From: Pokkaliibacter plantistimulans
Lineage (GTDB): Bacteria > Pseudomonadota > Gammaproteobacteria > Pseudomonadales > Balneatricaceae
Assembly (NCBI RefSeq): GCF_003194385.1
Contig: NZ_LAPT01000092.1
Location: forward strand, 1-51,262
DNA: 51,262 bases
Direction: 5' to 3'
This document shows positions 5,019 through 11,018 of the stretch, one piece after another (within the stretch, counting starts at the first letter, position 1; every line of letters begins with the position of its first letter). The notes beneath the pieces are model-generated. The model did not search any database. It saw only the letters and a program-made list of their open reading frames with translations, and was not told where the DNA came from. Made by a program: the position numbers and the translations under genes.

Positions 5019-6419
5019 ATGTCTACCAGCACCAGTGCCATTCTCACCGTTAGCCAGCTAACCCATCAGGCCCGTCTGATTCTGGAGCAGGGCTTCCCCA
5101 TGGTGGTGGTTGTCACCGGTGAGATTTCCAATTTCAGCAGCCCCGGCTCCGGCCACTGGTACTTCACCCTCAAGGATCATCAGGCGCAGATTCGCTGTGC
5201 CATGTTCCGCAATCGTAATCAGCTTTCCCGCTACCGTCCGCGCAACGGTGAACAGGTCAATCTTTATTGCCGCATCAGCCTGTATGAACCTCGGGGTGAC
5301 TTTCAGGTCATTGGGGAACGGATAGAGCCTGCAGGGCTTGGCAGCCTGCAACAAGCCTTTGAACAGTTGCAGCAGCGACTCGGGGCCGAGGGGCTGTTCG
5401 CCCAGCAGCACAAACAGCCCATACCGACCCAGCCGCAGCAGATTGGTGTGATTACTTCACCGACGGGAGCAGCAGTCAGAGATATCCTGACCGTGCTCAA
5501 ACGACGTTGCCCGGCCATTCCGGTTGAGCTGTTCCCGGTCGCGGTGCAGGGCAATGAGGCCGCCGGGCAGATTGTTCGTGCTATTCAGCTGGCTAACCAG
5601 CTGAATCAGTGTGATGTGCTGATCGTCGGTCGTGGTGGTGGTTCGCTGGAAGACCTGTGGCCGTTTAACGAAGAGATTGTCGCCCGCGCCATCTTCGCCA
5701 GCCGTATCCCGGTCATTTCTGCTGTCGGGCATGAGACCGATGTGACCATCAGCGATTTTGTTGCCGATCTGCGCGCCCCTACACCGTCAGCAGCGGCGGA
5801 ACTGGTCGCCCCCGATCAGCAGGTGTGGGAGCAAAGGTTGACGCAGCTGCAGCGGCGCCTGCGGGATGGCTGGAGCCGACAGTTGCGCTCCCGCCAGCAT
5901 CTGCTGCAACAGACTCAGCGTCGGCTGCGTGACCCGCGCCAGTATCTGCACACCCAGAAGCAACGACTGGACAACTACGAGCAACGCCTGCAGCGCTTGC
6001 AGCAGCGTCATCATGCCCAGCTGCGGCAACGTCTGCAGCAACTGCAGCACCGTCTGGAGTTTCAGGCACCGGCCAGACGCCTTGACCGCCAGCGTCAGCA
6101 GCTGCAGGACTTGCAGCAGCGCTTGCAACGCAGCATCAGTGACCGCCTGTTGCAGCAGCAACAGCGGGTTGATCAGTTGACCATGGCAGTCACTGACAGC
6201 GGCAATAAAAAGATCAGCACTGCACAGGAGCAGCTGCGCACAGTGATGCAGCAGCTGCATCTGGTCAGCCCGCTTGCCACCCTCGAACGCGGTTACGCCA
6301 TCCTGCAGGACGAGCGTGGCCAGGTGATTCGCCGCGCCAGCGAAGTCAGGGAAGGTAATCAGCTGCTGGCTCGACTGGCTGAGGGACAACTTCACCTGAC
6401 CGTTGATAAAAATAAATAA
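5019..6419 (+). CDS. xseA: Exodeoxyribonuclease VII large subunit
   Basis: Catalytic subunit of exonuclease VII, which degrades single-stranded DNA from both ends with the small subunit XseB (not in this window). An N-terminal OB fold (about 1-105, containing [20 protein letters not shown]) precedes the catalytic core with [16 protein letters not shown] and [21 protein letters not shown] long Gln/Arg-rich coiled coil covers about 260-400, and the terminal segment is [16 protein letters not shown]. The length of 466 is slightly above the usual 450 or so. It is divergent from guaB. A Fur box for the next gene begins three bases after the stop codon, so xseA may share the small RNA terminator at 6564-6593. 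Confidence 0.96.
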
Positions 6420-6421
6420 AA

Positions 6422-6441
6422 ACCATTCTCATTAGCATTGA
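6422..6441 (+). promoter_or_regulatory. Fur-box-like operator of small RNA 1
   Basis: On the minus strand the tandem hexamers AATGCT-AATGAG-AATGG run into TTTTTA. The 15-mer TGAGAATGGTTTTTA matches about 10 of 14 positions of the 7-1-7 Fur consensus. It overlaps the upstream edge of the -35 element. It is weaker than the paired site at 8329, but shares 15 bp with it (TCATTAGCATTGACA). Confidence 0.5.
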
Positions 6442-6466
6442 CATCACCTCCCTGCTTTGCCACTAT
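6438..6466 (+). promoter_or_regulatory. Promoter of small RNA 1
   Basis: Consensus -35 TTGACA (6438-6443), 17-bp spacer, -10 CACTAT (6461-6466). The predicted start is near 6473. The -35 and flank are identical to the promoter at 8352. Confidence 0.65.
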
Positions 6467-6472
6467 GGCCCA

Positions 6473-6593
6473 CAGGAAACGCGATGCAGCTGTATTACAC
6501 CATGATGTTCATGGCGTGCTGGTCACTGGTCGTTTTCTCTCATCAAAGCTAATCACGGTTCTTAGCCCCGCCCCATCGCGGGGCTTCTTTTTT
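6473..6593 (+). ncRNA. Putative Fur-regulated small RNA, copy 1
   Basis: A predicted transcript of about 120 nt starts after a TTGACA/CACTAT promoter with an adjoining Fur-like box and ends at a strong Rho-independent terminator. It has a 5' hairpin (CCATGA at 6500-6505, TCATGG at 6509-6514) and then a 40-nt segment (6532-6571) identical to 8463-8502, including TTCTCTCATCAAAGCTAATC. The shared core is U-rich and predicted unpaired before the terminator, as expected of an Hfq-dependent seed. The layout resembles RyhB/PrrF iron-sparing RNAs, but I do not recognise the sequence as a named family member. No convincing coding frame is present. Confidence 0.7.
6564..6593 (+). terminator. Terminator of small RNA 1
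   Basis: AGCCCCGC (6564-6571) pairs with GCGGGGCT (6578-6585) around a 6-nt loop, followed by TCTTTTTT. It may also terminate xseA. Confidence 0.9.
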
Positions 6594-6757
6594 CCGGCGT
6601 TGTATATCCCCTCGCTTACCGACACCTCTGCACGAGCTGCGCTGGCAGACTGCCCGCTGTTCTGCAATGGCCAGGTGCTGACGCCTTCCTCAATAAGAAA
6701 CACTTAGACACAACTCGCGCCCTTTTAATTTCCAAAATCGACGATATTTATTTCGCC

Positions 6758-6769
6758 ATATCGCGATAT
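6758..6769 (+). promoter_or_regulatory. Candidate operator of the ArsR-family regulator
   Basis: ATATCGCGATAT is a perfect 12-bp palindrome 33 bp upstream of the regulator's start. ArsR/SmtB-type proteins commonly bind AT-rich dyads of the ATAT...ATAT type in their own promoters, so autoregulation through this site is a reasonable inference. Confidence 0.5.
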
Positions 6770-6802
6770 AGAGAAATACTCAGACACTGGTGAGCATGCC
6801 CC

Positions 6803-7111
6803 ATGAACTCAAGCCCCGATATCGACGCCATCGTCAAGGCACTGGCCCACCCGGTCAGACGCCAGATACTGGCGTGGCTTAAGGAGCCTGAACACTGGTT
6901 CGCCACCCAGGCCACTCCACTGGAGCTGGGTGTTTGCGCAGGAATGATCTTCCAGCAGACCGGTCTGTCTCAGTCGACGACTTCAGCCCATCTGGCCGCC
7001 TTGCAGCGGGCAGATCTGGTCACGACCCAGAAGATCGGCCAATGGATCTACTTCCGGCGCAATGAACCGGTCATCCAGGCCTTTTTACAAACGTTCAGTG
7101 CCACGCTGTGA
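6803..7111 (+). CDS. ArsR-family winged-helix transcriptional regulator
   Basis: A 102-residue protein whose whole length is a winged helix-turn-helix: ALAHPVRRQILAWL is the first helices, and QQTGLSQSTTSAHLAALQRA with DLVTTQKIGQWIYFRR is the recognition helix and wing. It has a single cysteine (Cys45 in ELGVCAGMIF) just before the DNA-binding helix and lacks the paired ELCVCDL metal site of classical ArsR. Sensing is therefore more likely redox or electrophile based than arsenic based; this is inference. It precedes the old yellow enzyme gene by 109 nt on the same strand, a common pairing for flavin ene-reductases. A palindrome lies at 6758-6769. Both genes sit between the two small RNA genes. 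Confidence 0.85.
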   Translation: MNSSPDIDAIVKALAHPVRRQILAWLKEPEHWFATQATPLELGVCAGMIFQQTGLSQSTTSAHLAALQRADLVTTQKIGQWIYFRRNEPVIQAFLQTFSATL

Positions 7112-7220
7112 GCCCGGCACTGAACCATTGATGCGTTACTGAACGAGCGAACACCGAAAGAGGCTCCCCTGTTTCGGTGAAATGATGCTCTTTGATGGTA
7201 AGAAACGAGGAAAGTACCCC

Positions 7221-8279
7221 ATGTCCGTATTGTTTGAATCTCTGCAAGTCGGCGCCCTGCAACTCCCCAACCGTATTGTCATGGCACCGCTGACCCGTTG
7301 CCGTGCCGATGAAGGCCGGATTCCCAATGCACTGATGGCGGAGTACTACACTCAGCGTGCCAGTGCTGGCCTGATCCTGACCGAAGCCACCTCTGTCACC
7401 CCCATGGGCGTGGGTTATCCCAACACTCCGGGGATCTGGAACGAGGCACAGGTACAAGGCTGGCGCCAGGTGACCGAGGCAGTACATGCCAAAGGTGGCC
7501 GTATCATGCTGCAGCTGTGGCACGTTGGCCGCATTTCTGACCCCATCTATCTCGACGGCGAATTGCCGGTCGCCCCCAGCGCTGTGCAGCCTGCCGGTCA
7601 TGTCAGTCTGGTGCGCCCGGAAAAAGCCTTCGTCACTCCGCGCCCGCTGGCTACCGAAGAGCTGCCCGGTATTGTCGAGGCGTATCGTCAGGGTGCCATC
7701 AATGCCAAAGCGGCAGGATTTGACGGTGTCGAAGTGCACTCCGCCAACGGCTACCTGCTGGAGCAGTTCCTCGCTACCGGCAGTAACCTGCGCGATGACC
7801 AGTATGGTGGCTCGGTAGAAAACCGTGCCCGCCTGCTGATGGAAGTCACCGATGCCGTCATCAGTGTGTGGGGAGCGGATCGCGTGGGCGTTCACCTGTC
7901 TCCACGTGGCGATGCACACGATATCAGGCACAGTGATCGCGAAGCGGTGTACTCCTACGTCGCCCGTGAACTTGGCAAACGCAAGATTGCCTTTATCTGT
8001 GCCCGCGAAGCTGAGGGTGATGACAGTCTCGGCGCCAAACTGAAAGACCTGTTTGGTGGCGTCTATATTGCCAATGAAAAATTCACCGCCGCCTCCGCTG
8101 AAGCGGCCATTGAACGCGGTGTGACCGATGCAGTTGCCTTTGGCGTACCCTATATTGCCAACCCTGACCTGCCTGAGCGCTTTGCACAGGGAGCAGCGCT
8201 GAACGCACCCGATACCAGCACGTTCTATGGTGCCGGTGCAGAGGGCTATACCAGCTACCCAACGCTGGGTGCCAGCTGA
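7221..8279 (+). CDS. Old yellow enzyme family ene-reductase (NemA-like)
   Basis: FMN-dependent NAD(P)H oxidoreductase that reduces activated C=C bonds and nitro compounds such as N-ethylmaleimide or nitrate esters. Family features are the N-terminal LPNRIVMAPLTRCRA (the Thr modulates flavin potential), HVGRISDP, the substrate-anion pair His173/Asn176 in VEVHSANGYLLEQFL, and DQYGGSVENRARLLMEV. The C-terminal phosphate-binding end is AVAFGVPYIANPDLPERF. I chose ATG 7221 because GAGGAAAG lies 8 bases upstream and the family starts with a short lead into LFxxxxxG; an ATG at 7182 has no such site. The product is 352 residues. It is probably co-transcribed with the ArsR-type gene. No terminator precedes the second small RNA promoter. 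Confidence 0.9.
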   Translation: MSVLFESLQVGALQLPNRIVMAPLTRCRADEGRIPNALMAEYYTQRASAGLILTEATSVTPMGVGYPNTPGIWNEAQVQGWRQVTEAVHAKGGRIMLQLWHVGRISDPIYLDGELPVAPSAVQPAGHVSLVRPEKAFVTPRPLATEELPGIVEAYRQGAINAKAAGFDGVEVHSANGYLLEQFLATGSNLRDDQYGGSVENRARLLMEVTDAVISVWGADRVGVHLSPRGDAHDIRHSDREAVYSYVARELGKRKIAFICAREAEGDDSLGAKLKDLFGGVYIANEKFTAASAEAAIERGVTDAVAFGVPYIANPDLPERFAQGAALNAPDTSTFYGAGAEGYTSYPTLGAS

Positions 8280-8328
8280 GAAGCGGATTACGGTCCAGCC
8301 CGTTCAGCCGGGTGCAACACAAAAATTA

Positions 8329-8347
8329 AATGAAAATTATTATCATT
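8329..8347 (+). promoter_or_regulatory. Fur box of small RNA 2
   Basis: AATGAAAATTATTATCATT contains TGAAAATTATTATCA, which matches 13 of 14 positions of the 7-1-7 Fur consensus TGATAATnATTATCA. It ends 4 bp upstream of the -35 element, so bound Fur would block RNA polymerase. Confidence 0.8.
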
Positions 8348-8351
8348 AGCA

Positions 8352-8380
8352 TTGACAGGAAAAGACTAGCTCCCTAGTAT
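8352..8380 (+). promoter_or_regulatory. Promoter of small RNA 2
   Basis: TTGACA (8352-8357), 17-bp spacer, TAGTAT (8375-8380). The predicted start is near 8387. This is a near-consensus sigma-70 promoter. Confidence 0.75.
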
Positions 8381-8386
8381 GCGTCG

Positions 8387-8522
8387 TCAGGGAACGCAAT
8401 TACCCATGCCTCCACCCCTTCAGCAAGTTCGCTTGCTGCACATAGCCCGGCGGTCATAGGTTGTTTTCTCTCATCAAAGCTAATCACGGTTCTTAGCCCC
8501 GCTCTTGCGGGGCTTCTTTTTT
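8387..8522 (+). ncRNA. Putative Fur-regulated small RNA, copy 2
   Basis: A predicted transcript of about 136 nt under the best Fur box in the window. Its 5' half carries a perfect UUCG-capped hairpin (CAGCAAG 8421-8427, CTTGCTG 8432-8438) unrelated to the 5' hairpin of copy 1. From about 8452 it becomes homologous to copy 1, with 40 identical bases at 8463-8502 and the same terminator stem. Conservation of an unstructured core plus terminator, with divergent 5' halves, is what paralogous RyhB/PrrF-type RNAs show. By established Fur biology it would accumulate under iron starvation. Targets are unknown. No protein-coding frame is convincing. Confidence 0.75.
8495..8522 (+). terminator. Terminator of small RNA 2
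   Basis: AGCCCCGC (8495-8502), loop TCTT, GCGGGGCT (8507-8514), then TCTTTTTT. It probably also ends the upstream ArsR/ene-reductase transcript. Confidence 0.92.
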
Positions 8523-8845: not shown

Positions 8846-10282
8846 ATGATCAACAGTCTGAAACTCAAAGTATTTCTGGTCCTGCTGGCGACCATCGCCG
8901 CTGTCGTGATGACAGCCTTTGTCGTATTCCAGTGGAGTTTTCAGCGCGGCTTTATCGACTATCTGCATTCACAGGAGCAGAGCCGCATCCAGCAGGTCAC
9001 TCAGGAAGCCTGCCTGCTCTACAAACAGAGCAACTCCTGGACGCCGGTGGTAGACAATGCCGCCCTGTGGCGCCGCGTGCGCTACGCGGGCAATGTCGAT
9101 GCCGACATTATCGTCAAGGCGCTGGACGACTATGAAAGCCGCACCAATGAGCCCCTGCCAGACTGGAGCAATGCCAGCCTCAATGACGGCGACACCCCCT
9201 TCGAAGCACGTCTTTCACTCTATGACCCACAAAAGAACTGGCTGACCGGCAGCAGCAATAACGAGCGCCCGTCAGACTTTTATCCCATCAGTTGTGAACA
9301 CAAGCTGACAGGTTTTATCGGCGTGGTCATGAAGCCGGAAATGCTGCATATGCGCGATCAGGCTTTTACTGAGGAACAGACTCAGAGTTTTGTCATCCTT
9401 GCGCTGGTGACCGTGTTTATTGCGACGCTGGTGGCCTGGCCTGTGGCCCAGCGCCTGACCCGGCCCCTCAAGGCCCTGAGTAACGCCAGCCATAAACTGG
9501 CTAACGGCGAATACTCCATCCGCCTGAACAACCGCTCCAAAGATGAAATTGGCCGTCTGGCCAAGGACTTCAACCGCATGGCGCAGACCCTGCAGGAAAA
9601 CGAAGAAGGCCGGCGTCGCTGGATGGCGGGGATCGCCCATGAGCTGCGGACACCGCTGGCCATCCTGCAAGGTGAGATCGAAGCCATTCAGGACGGCATC
9701 CGCCCTCTCAATCAGCAGAGTCTGGCATCACTTCACCATGAGACTCAGCAGCTCAAACGCCTGGTGGATGACCTGTACGAACTCGCGCTCAGTGACCGTG
9801 GCGTGGTCAGCTACCGCATGGAAGATATTGATCTGGTTGAATGTCTGGAACAAAGTGTGGAATCGAGCCGGCACAGCTTCGAAGAGAAGAATCTCGATCT
9901 GAGCCTCGATGTGGGCACCATTACCCATATTCCACTGAAAGCCGACTACCGCCGCCTGAGCCAGCTGTTTACCAATCTACTCAGCAACTCGACGCGCTAT
10001 ACCGACGCTCCCGGGCAATGTCGGGTCAGTGTGGCGGTCGCGGACGACTGGGCAGAGATTAACGTGATGGACAGCAGCCCCGGTGTCGAGCCGGAAAACC
10101 TGCCACGCATGTTTGAACGATTTTTCCGTGGTGAAGGTTCGCGTAACCGCGCCTACGGCGGCGCCGGCCTTGGGCTGAGTATCTGCCACAACATTGTGGA
10201 GGCTCATGGCGGCACAATTGAGTCACGCCCCTCACCCCTGGGGGGAGTATGGATACATGTGAAGCTCCCGCTGGATACCTGA
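8846..10282 (+). CDS. baeS: Envelope-stress sensor histidine kinase BaeS
   Basis: Inner-membrane sensor of the BaeSR envelope-stress system, which in other gammaproteobacteria controls RND efflux pumps and Spy-like chaperones. It has an N-terminal membrane helix (about 8-28), a periplasmic sensor domain, a second helix (about 180-200) and HAMP (RPLKALSNASHKLANGEYSI). The DHp domain carries phosphoacceptor His265 in AGIAHELRTPLAILQGEIEA. The ATPase domain has the N box QLFTNLLSNSTRYTD, a G1 box DSSPGV, the F box MFERFFRGEGSRNR and the G2 box GGAGLGLSI. E. coli BaeS likewise has DSAPGV instead of DxGxG, supporting the assignment. It is 478 residues long, and baeR follows after 46 nt. Confidence 0.9.
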   Translation: MINSLKLKVFLVLLATIAAVVMTAFVVFQWSFQRGFIDYLHSQEQSRIQQVTQEACLLYKQSNSWTPVVDNAALWRRVRYAGNVDADIIVKALDDYESRTNEPLPDWSNASLNDGDTPFEARLSLYDPQKNWLTGSSNNERPSDFYPISCEHKLTGFIGVVMKPEMLHMRDQAFTEEQTQSFVILALVTVFIATLVAWPVAQRLTRPLKALSNASHKLANGEYSIRLNNRSKDEIGRLAKDFNRMAQTLQENEEGRRRWMAGIAHELRTPLAILQGEIEAIQDGIRPLNQQSLASLHHETQQLKRLVDDLYELALSDRGVVSYRMEDIDLVECLEQSVESSRHSFEEKNLDLSLDVGTITHIPLKADYRRLSQLFTNLLSNSTRYTDAPGQCRVSVAVADDWAEINVMDSSPGVEPENLPRMFERFFRGEGSRNRAYGGAGLGLSICHNIVEAHGGTIESRPSPLGGVWIHVKLPLDT

Positions 10283-10328
10283 ATTACTGCAGAAACGACT
10301 ATTTACTTAACTTGATTGGAGTGACGGG

Positions 10329-11018
10329 ATGCCAAACAAAATTCTGGTCGTCGAAGATGAACCCAAGCTGGCCCAGCTACTGACTGACTATCTCAGCAGC
10401 TCAGGGTATGACTGCCGCCACATCGACAACGGTGATGAGGTGGAGGCCTGGGTCAAGGCCAACAGCCCTGACGTGATTCTGCTCGACATCATGCTACCCG
10501 GCAAAGACGGTCTGAGCCTGTGCCGTGATATCCGCATGTTCAGCAGCGTGCCCATCATCATGGTGACAGCACGCGTGGAAGAGATTGATCGTCTGATCGG
10601 TCTGGAAATGGGTGCCGATGACTATATCTGCAAACCCTTCAGCCCGCGCGAAGTGGTAGCCCGCGTCAAGGCCATTCTGCGTCGCCAGTCGCTGCTGGCC
10701 GAACCCAACAGCAGCGAAGCCCAGGAGTCCATCCTGACGCTGGACCCGCACAGCATGCGCGCAACCCATCAGGGCCGCCATGTGGAGCTGACGCAGGTGG
10801 AATTCCAGCTGCTGTCGGTGCTGTACCAGTCACCCGGCCGTATCTTTACCCGTGAGCAGATCATGCAGCGTATCTATGGCGATCACCGTATCGTCAGCGA
10901 CCGTACCATCGACAGCCACATCAAGAAGCTGCGTCGCAAGATCGAGCAGCTGATCCCCAATACCCTGCTGATTCAGTCAGTCTACGGTGCCGGTTACCGT
11001 TTCGACCTGCCCGGTTAA
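10329..11018 (+). CDS. baeR: Response regulator BaeR
   Basis: OmpR/PhoB-class regulator of the envelope-stress response. The receiver domain (about 1-118) has the acidic pair in ILVVEDEPKLAQLL, phosphoacceptor Asp53 in VILLDIMLPGKDGL, Thr in IIMVTARVEEIDRL and Lys in DDYICKPFSPREVVARVKAI; the last two closely match BaeR. The winged-helix output domain (about 130-229) ends with DRTIDSHIKKLRRKIE and SVYGAGYRFDLPG. GGAGTGACGGG precedes the ATG. It is co-directional with baeS and likely co-transcribed. Confidence 0.92.
   Translation: MPNKILVVEDEPKLAQLLTDYLSSSGYDCRHIDNGDEVEAWVKANSPDVILLDIMLPGKDGLSLCRDIRMFSSVPIIMVTARVEEIDRLIGLEMGADDYICKPFSPREVVARVKAILRRQSLLAEPNSSEAQESILTLDPHSMRATHQGRHVELTQVEFQLLSVLYQSPGRIFTREQIMQRIYGDHRIVSDRTIDSHIKKLRRKIEQLIPNTLLIQSVYGAGYRFDLPG

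What the first reader, a model, noticed from the sequence alone, without database searches (positions are those of the whole stretch)
6420..8522. Twin Fur-controlled small RNA genes bracketing an ArsR regulator and an ene-reductase
Seen: two transcription units on the same strand, 1.9 kb apart, each with a Fur-like box, TTGACA with 17-bp spacing, a 40-nt identical core and the same terminator stem. The second Fur box matches 13 of 14 consensus positions. Known: duplicated Fur-repressed RNAs such as PrrF1/PrrF2 control iron-sparing in pseudomonads. Inference: this is a RyhB/PrrF-like pair of this lineage, not flagged by protein-based annotation, with a redox regulator and a flavoenzyme enclosed between the copies. 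That arrangement would link iron starvation with electrophile or redox stress.
Basis: partly seen in the sequence, partly recalled or inferred. Interest (0 to 1): 0.85.

Follow-up and report, generated by a model that had tools for sequence, protein, structure and literature searches.

The report
PrrF iron-sparing small RNAs beyond Pseudomonas
This stretch holds two copies of a small-RNA gene related to the PrrF RNAs of Pseudomonas, each behind a predicted iron-sensing (Fur) switch; the RNAs likely shut off an iron-using enzyme when iron is scarce, and relatives in several other bacterial families show that this RNA family reaches well beyond Pseudomonas.

Summary
Two units 1,931 bp apart share an identical 40-nt core, a terminator, TTGACA and a Fur-like box; copy 2's box is the only zero-mismatch match in the 5.8-Mb genome. 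Both are divergent PrrF RNAs: Rfam RF00444 matches (E 3.7e-7, 1.5e-4) but below its curated cut-off (51 and 39 of 90 bits). A model built on them finds the family at E<=1e-7 in 54 of 390 genomes of the order (8 families), 13 with tandem arrays of 2-5 copies. Of 116 genomes of the own family, one other (Balneatrix alpica, three tandem copies, same site behind xseA) has a full-core match. The core pairs with the Fe-superoxide dismutase ribosome-binding site: rank 1 of 601 own gene starts tested, better than with the sodB leaders of 11 relatives without a full core, and not with the Mn-type enzyme, which has a weaker Fur-like box of its own. Predicted job: iron sparing, Fe-SOD off, Mn-SOD on. The proposed link to the enclosed ArsR/ene-reductase is not supported: Balneatrix lacks them in its array, a Caballeronia plasmid carries them with no PrrF beside them, and arsR shows no pairing. 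Nothing was tested at the bench.

The parts
6415..6433 (+). Fur-like box of copy 1 (3 mismatches to AATGANAATNATTATCATT)
6438..6466 (+). Promoter of copy 1: TTGACA, 17 bp, CACTAT (weak -10)
   Evidence: sequence
6474..6592 (+). prrF1-like small RNA, predicted 119 nt (5' end inferred from the promoter)
   Evidence: RF00444 39.2 bits, E 1.5e-4; R1 82.2 bits (a training sequence)
6532..6571 (+). 40-nt core identical in both copies; contains CTCATCAAAGCTAATCACGG
6564..6592 (+). Intrinsic terminator of copy 1
   Evidence: helix covariation over the family
6758..6769 (.). Perfect palindrome ATATCGCGATAT upstream of arsR, possible ArsR operator (inferred)
6803..7111 (+). ArsR-family regulator, enclosed but probably unrelated to the RNAs
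   Evidence: PF01022, NF033788 63 bits over cut-off 55
7221..8279 (+). Old-yellow-enzyme ene-reductase, NemA-like
   Evidence: PF00724; NF007899 378.9 bits, just under cut-off 403
8329..8347 (+). Fur-like box of copy 2, the best match in the genome (0 mismatches)
8352..8380 (+). Promoter of copy 2: TTGACA, 17 bp, TAGTAT
8389..8521 (+). prrF2-like small RNA, predicted 133 nt (5' end inferred)
   Evidence: RF00444 51.2 bits, E 3.7e-7; fold z -3.06
8463..8502 (+). 40-nt core of copy 2
8495..8521 (+). Intrinsic terminator of copy 2
5019..6419 (+). xseA, the upstream neighbour shared with Balneatrix alpica
   Evidence: TIGR00237 511.6 bits; tblastn to L012

Best explanation
These are two divergent copies of the PrrF small RNA, each behind a predicted Fur-repressed promoter, and they likely act when iron is scarce by pairing with the ribosome-binding site of the Fe-superoxide dismutase mRNA, which would block its translation. 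Shown by sequence: homology to PrrF, the Fur-like boxes, terminators, the family across the order, and complementarity to sodB that is missing in relatives without a full core. Inferred: Fur binding, transcription, Hfq dependence, repression of sodB. The own genome's Mn-type SOD has a Fur-like box about 100 nt before its start and no complementarity, so low iron would swap Fe-SOD for Mn-SOD. The stronger box and -10 of copy 2 predict that it is the more tightly controlled copy. The enclosed arsR/ene-reductase pair is most likely cargo sitting between the copies, not part of the circuit.
For: Sub-threshold RF00444 matches spanning the whole model in both copies. Best Fur-box match of the genome at copy 2. 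Family members at E<=1e-7 in 54 of 390 genomes of the order, 80 copies; 77 of the 80 were read and all hold GCTARTCA. Of 70 R1 matches, 60 have a Fur-like box at p<=0.05 and 59 a TTGAC upstream. Terminator: all 7 pairs have changes on both sides. sodB: -36.0 and -31.8 kcal/mol for copies 2 and 1, rank 1 of 601 own gene starts, 0 of 2,000 shuffled cores as good for either copy; sodB of 11 relatives without a full core -10.8 to -20.1 with copy 2 (11 of 11 weaker); cognate pairs beat permuted pairs over 13 genomes, p 0.0002; Mn-type SOD -11.5, rank 521 of 601. Fur-like box before the Mn-type SOD.
Against: Both copies score below Rfam's gathering score. Copy 1 has a weak Fur box and -10. With the 34-nt cores, 4 of 13 Fe-type sodB leaders were not significant (p 0.11-0.21), Balneatrix among them. 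Foreign cores can pair with the own sodB as well as the cognate one (-39.1, -36.5), and the permutation test ignores kinship. sdhC, a classical target (recalled), does not discriminate: CCGTGA at its start occurs in 14 of 14 genomes with and 13 of 14 without a full core, and own sdhC ranks 194 of 601. One of the 'without' genomes, G004, turned out to hold a shortened-core candidate. The Mn-SOD box has 3 mismatches, a level at which the reversed control pattern gives 11 matches against 36. Pairing energies ignore accessibility. No expression data.
Confidence: 0.87

Rival explanations
1. The pair plus ArsR and ene-reductase form one regulatory module that links iron starvation to electrophile or redox stress, for instance by read-through from copy 1 into arsR or by PrrF pairing with the reductase mRNA.
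For: The genes do lie between the copies; the reductase start pairs at -22.5 kcal/mol, fifth of 45 window genes.
Against: Balneatrix has three tandem copies at the same site with no gene between; a Caballeronia plasmid carries the ArsR/reductase pair (64% and 66% identity) with no PrrF in the 7,410 bases read; terminator after copy 1; arsR pairing -13.4; own palindrome before arsR. Genomic islands inserted at prrF1/prrF2 of P. aeruginosa are in print (PMC8373256, abstract and passages), so unrelated cargo there has precedent.
Confidence: 0.08
2. The units are Fur-regulated RNAs that arose independently and only resemble PrrF by convergence on the same seed and architecture.
For: 5' halves are not alignable with Pseudomonas PrrF and the 5' hairpin of the Rfam model is not aligned; the Fur box lies before the -35 here but after it in the Rfam-recognised copies of family f21.
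Against: Core shared with those copies over CTCATCA..GCTAATCACGGTT, graded intermediates in other families, some of which also have the box before the -35.
Confidence: 0.04
3. One or both units are decayed copies without function.
For: Copy 1 has a poor -10 and a Fur box at 10 of 14 positions.
Against: Core and terminator are 91% identical between the copies while promoters (62-69%) and 5' halves (53%) have drifted, which points to constraint or gene conversion on the active part.
Confidence: 0.05

Closest known systems
PrrF1/PrrF2 of Pseudomonas (Rfam RF00444)
   Same: Fur-like box, core CTCATCA..GCTAATCACGGTT, intrinsic terminator, similar size (116 and 114 nt in P. aeruginosa per PMC2851614, passages), two copies, sodB as predicted target (PMC13104616, abstract and passages).
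   Different: 5' half not alignable; RNA start resembling AGGAAACGC that can pair with the core (no shuffled control); Fur box before instead of after the -35; below Rfam's cut-off; copies 1.9 kb apart around two protein genes.
PrrF array of Balneatrix alpica DSM 16621 (found here)
   Same: Same core, box before -35, same site behind xseA, same family.
   Different: Three copies 225 and 290 bp apart, no gene between.
RyhB of E. coli (RF00057)
   Same: Same predicted job: Fur-repressed iron sparing with sodB as target (recalled).
   Different: No sequence homology: 18.3 bits, E 3.6.
ArrF of Azotobacter and NrrF of Neisseria
   Same: Called iron-repressed homologues of PrrF in PMC2851614 (passage).
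   Different: Not compared here.

Membership tests
PrrF (RF00444) | Match to the family's covariance model | tested here: inconclusive
   Model positions 1-150 with E 3.7e-7 and 1.5e-4, but 51.2 and 39.2 bits against the gathering score of 90
PrrF (RF00444) | Curated gathering score of 90 bits | tested here: not met
   also not met in any of the 15 loci outside family f21 among 20 scanned. It is a curator's score cut-off, not a biological feature
PrrF (RF00444) | Conserved core CTCATCA..GCTAATCACGGTT | tested here: met
PrrF (RF00444) | Fur box at the promoter | tested here: met
   Copy 2 best in genome; copy 1 weaker. Its place relative to the -35 differs from family f21
PrrF (RF00444) | Intrinsic terminator | tested here: met
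PrrF (RF00444) | 5' hairpin of the Rfam consensus | tested here: not met
   Positions of the 5' stem are deleted in both alignments
PrrF (RF00444) | Complementarity to the sodB ribosome-binding site | tested here: met
   Rank 1 of 601 gene starts; weaker in 11 of 11 relatives without a full core
PrrF (RF00444) | Induction in low iron, Fur repression, Hfq use | not testable with these tools
   Needs RNA and mutants
RyhB (RF00057) | Sequence homology to RyhB | tested here: not met
   18.3 bits against 55, E 3.6

The most novel reading that the evidence does not exclude
PrrF is not a Pseudomonas invention but an old iron-sparing RNA of the whole order, present in at least eight families and repeatedly amplified in tandem (up to five copies). 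Its core is two-part: the TCTC..CATCA half has coevolved with the sodB leader, the TAATCACGG half reads sdhC, and lineages have lost the sodB half while keeping the other. Copy number and Fur-box strength per copy would set the threshold and depth of the iron-sparing response.
Probability: 0.7. Interest if true: 0.74.

Novelty: new variant of a known kind. Interest (0 to 1): 0.6.

Why it matters
Among 20 loci scanned, Rfam's PrrF model passes its cut-off only in the family that is probably Pseudomonadaceae, so annotation that relies on it would miss the RNA in the other seven families. Published accounts call tandem prrF restricted to P. aeruginosa (PMC2851614) plus single strains of P. denitrificans and P. 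mendocina (PMC4211561) and tie it to heme and infection; tandem arrays in six families make that argument testable. The own genome also gives a readable Fe-to-Mn SOD switch: one Fur-like box before Mn-SOD, another before an RNA aimed at Fe-SOD.

Tried and rejected
sdhC as a discriminating target: it looked decisive (CCGTGA at the GTG start in 14 of 14 genomes with a full core) until the control: 13 of 14 relatives without one have it too. The longer GTGAATAGC occurs in 9 of 14 against 0 of 14, but not in the own genome or Balneatrix, and kinship confounds it.

Weak model hits in the own family (R1 24.6-39 bits; R2 29-35 bits): my first look ignored the strand of the hit when it scanned for Fur boxes. 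The strand-aware repeat covered 32 of these loci: 31 have no Fur-like box (p 0.16 or more) and are mostly bare terminators; L141 (G004) has a Fur-like box (15 of 19) and TAATCACGG, so it is a real candidate for a shortened relative. L094, the R1 hit in G116 at E 3.4e-5, was dropped as false before R2 was built. L052, L053, L057 and L059, close kin of kept loci, were also left out of the R2 alignment.

G187 was dropped from the sodB permutation (its only match is of the second SOD type, p 0.64). L113 was read from an internal ATG by my script. The first reductase translation, was out of frame; the identity quoted is. A 22-codon reading frame in copy 1 was considered as a dual-function RNA and set aside: I saw no matching frame in copy 2, but did no systematic test.

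Literature: PrrF with Halomonas, Azotobacter, Marinobacter, Oceanospirillales genera, Pseudomonadaceae, RF00444, RyhB with Halomonas, and Balneatrix showed no report of a native PrrF by sequence outside Pseudomonas and Azotobacter. Only open-access text is held, and lists were capped (15 of 297 shown, none of the 15 with PrrF), so this is not proof of absence.
Full report
What is there. Two transcription units on the + strand, 1,931 bp apart, have the same layout: a Fur-like box, TTGACA, 17 bp, a -10, a variable stretch, a 40-nt identical core and a GC-rich terminator with a T-run. xseA lies upstream, an ArsR-family regulator and a NemA-like ene-reductase between, and a BaeSR-like two-component pair downstream. 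The Fur pattern AATGANAATNATTATCATT with up to 3 mismatches matches only at these two promoters in the window, against 0.08 expected. In the whole genome (19 forward and 17 reverse matches, 6 and 5 for the reversed control pattern) copy 2's box is the only zero-mismatch match. Copy 1 is weaker: 10 of 14 positions, and CACTAT as -10.

What it is. Rfam lists no RNA here at its curated thresholds, but at relaxed thresholds RF00444 (PrrF) matches both units over model positions 1-150: copy 2 51.2 bits, E 3.7e-7; copy 1 39.2 bits, E 1.5e-4; the gathering score is 90. The core and terminator align well; the 5' hairpin of Pseudomonas PrrF is missing. The own genome has these two; the third match is 18.6 bits and overlaps another Fur-like box.

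Relatives. A model (R1) from 8 core-plus-terminator sequences was run over 116 genomes of the family: only the own genome and one other score above 80 bits; the next is 39 and is a bare terminator. Over 390 genomes of the order R1 finds 49 at E<=1e-4, one of them a false hit (G116); in 274 genomes of the class, 3, all of the own order. A second model (R2, 65 sequences) finds 85 of 390 at E<=1e-3; scores fall off without a clean gap, so I took E<=1e-7 as a cautious line: 54 genomes, 80 copies, 8 families (f1, f2, f7, f16, f21, f35, f37, f38). I read 77 of the 80 copies; all hold GCTARTCA. Twenty of the 54 genomes have two or more copies, and 13, in 6 families, have them within 400 bp: up to five in G364, four of them 277 bp apart in a row. 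The searches scored only 13 (order), 19 (class) or 45 (family) candidates per genome, so counts are lower bounds.

Shortened cores. Just below that line lie RNAs that keep GCTAATCACGGTT and a terminator but not the CTCATCA half: five of six further loci read (G400, G307, G287, G243, G171), four of those five with a Fur-like box at p<=0.05; the sixth, G433, has the full core. In the own family G004 has GGTAATCACGGCTT, a terminator and a Fur-like box (15 of 19 positions, p 0 of 100 shuffles). Its region pairs with its own sdhC start (-31.2 kcal/mol, p 0.007) but not with its own sodB (-18.9, p 0.2). So G004, one of my 'without PrrF' controls, is better called 'without a full core', and shortened RNAs could be what keeps CCGTGA at sdhC in relatives. 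I had no searches left to look for them in the other genomes.

Constraint. All 7 terminator pairs have changes on both sides; covariation for the whole structure (11 pairs) is 0.569 against 0.166 in shuffles and at most 0.119 in slid versions. Of 70 R1 matches inspected (one of them false), 60 have a Fur-like 19-mer upstream at p<=0.05 against shuffles of their own upstream DNA and 59 a TTGAC within 180 nt; of 8 further copies above the line, 5 have such a box. Of the 59, the box precedes TTGAC in 16, own and Balneatrix copies included, and follows it in 43, all family f21 copies among them: the switch has been rearranged.

Target. In 13 genomes with PrrF the Fe-type sodB leader was paired with the core; with 34-nt cores 9 of 13 reach p<=0.05 around the Shine-Dalgarno sequence. 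Five SOD genes of the second type gave p 0.50-0.76 (one from a wrong start). With 42-nt cores the own pair is -36.0 (copy 2) and -31.8 kcal/mol (copy 1); with sodB leaders of 11 relatives without a full core copy 2 gives -10.8 to -20.1 and copy 1 -10.6 to -21.4 (3 of the 14 relatives searched have no match to this SOD family). Over 13 genomes cognate pairs are stronger than permuted ones (-342.5 against -305.8, p 0.0002; kinship not corrected). Foreign cores can pair with own sodB as strongly (-39.1, -36.5), so specificity is partial. Among 601 gene starts in 704,566 bases (12%) of the own genome, a set chosen to include sodB, sdhC, Mn-SOD and Fur-box neighbourhoods, sodB ranks first (next -32.7; mean -16.1, sd 4.5); none of 2,000 shuffled cores does as well for either copy. 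The targeted enzyme is Fe-SOD by NCBIfam (354.9 bits, cut-off 348; named nearest structures are Fe-SODs). The second SOD is nearest Mn-SOD models and structures (271 bits, under its cut-off of 363), ranks 521 of 601, and has a Fur-like box centred 107 nt before its start, with 3 mismatches, a level at which some chance sites are expected. Another box (1 mismatch) lies between a fumC-like and an aconitase-like gene, others near TonB-receptor-like and ECF-sigma-like genes (names are my reading of the translations).

Mechanism (committed, likely). With iron, Fur would sit just upstream of the -35 of both copies and before Mn-SOD. Without iron, both RNAs and Mn-SOD would be made; the RNAs, presumably with Hfq, would cover the sodB ribosome-binding site through GGTTGTTTTCTCTCATCA and GCTAATCACGGTT. 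The 5' end can pair with the start of the core in all five copies of this lineage (-5.3 to -11.5 kcal/mol, no shuffled control), perhaps protecting the RNA until it meets a target. None of this was measured.

The enclosed genes. Balneatrix has none in its array. Caballeronia sp. SBC2 plasmid pSBC2-2 carries the same pair (ArsR 64%, reductase 66% identity) with no PrrF in the 7,410 bases read (best R2 score 6.9 bits); a second Caballeronia record shows the same two-piece match in the listing. The pair has a palindrome of its own upstream. Pairing of the RNA with arsR is -13.4 and with the reductase -22.5. I read the pair as cargo. In P. aeruginosa genomic islands insert at the prrF1/prrF2 locus, one genome keeping both flanks (PMC8373256, abstract and passages).

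Novelty. PMC2851614 (passages) states that tandem prrF is restricted to P. aeruginosa; PMC4211561 (passages) adds one P. denitrificans and one P. mendocina strain; PMC13104616 (abstract and passages, 2026) compares Pseudomonas species only. PMC13414033 (passages) mentions the P. aeruginosa PrrF1 scaffold engineered into a Halomonas, not a native one. My searches showed no report of the wider family, within open-access text and capped lists.

Noticed in passing
L141 (G004:C58:53314-53360, minus strand): Shortened PrrF-like RNA in the own family: TAATCACGGCTT plus terminator and a strong Fur-like box, pairing with its own sdhC start (p 0.007) and not with sodB (p 0.2).
   Followed up: partly
L247, L249, L250, L251, L252: RNAs with only the GCTAATCACGGTT half of the core in two other families; four of the five have a Fur-like box at p<=0.05.
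   Followed up: partly
window 6484-6552: Copy 1 contains a 22-codon frame (MQLYYTMMFMACWSLVVFSHQS) with AGGA upstream, ending at the TAA inside the core. Probably chance, but a dual-function RNA is not excluded.
   Followed up: partly
L077 (G364:C3:1547636-1548842): Five tandem PrrF copies, four of them 277 bp apart in a row: recent amplification.
   Followed up: partly
G000:C158:33828-33846 (L224): Strong Fur-like box (1 mismatch on both strands) between a fumC-like and an aconitase-like gene, divergently placed.
   Followed up: partly
L212 77-1216, minus strand: The start of a gene that looks like a periplasmic sulfate-binding protein pairs at -31.1 kcal/mol with both copies (third of 601): possible further target linking iron and sulfur.
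   Followed up: no
L118, L123 and L152-L165: The sdhC start context CCGTGA is almost invariant with or without a full-core PrrF (27 of 28 genomes over).
   Followed up: partly
family f1 (116 genomes): Only 2 of 116 genomes of the own family hold a full-core PrrF at a convincing score; what the others use for iron sparing is open (shortened RNAs, as in G004?).
   Followed up: partly
L020, L030, L035 (genus g13): Recurrent TTTTATCCTCATCAT plus terminator without a convincing Fur box upstream: possibly another small RNA or leader.
   Followed up: no
window 8846-11018: BaeS/BaeR-like two-component pair right after copy 2 (under NCBIfam cut-offs); Balneatrix has a phasin-like gene there instead (my reading).
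   Followed up: no
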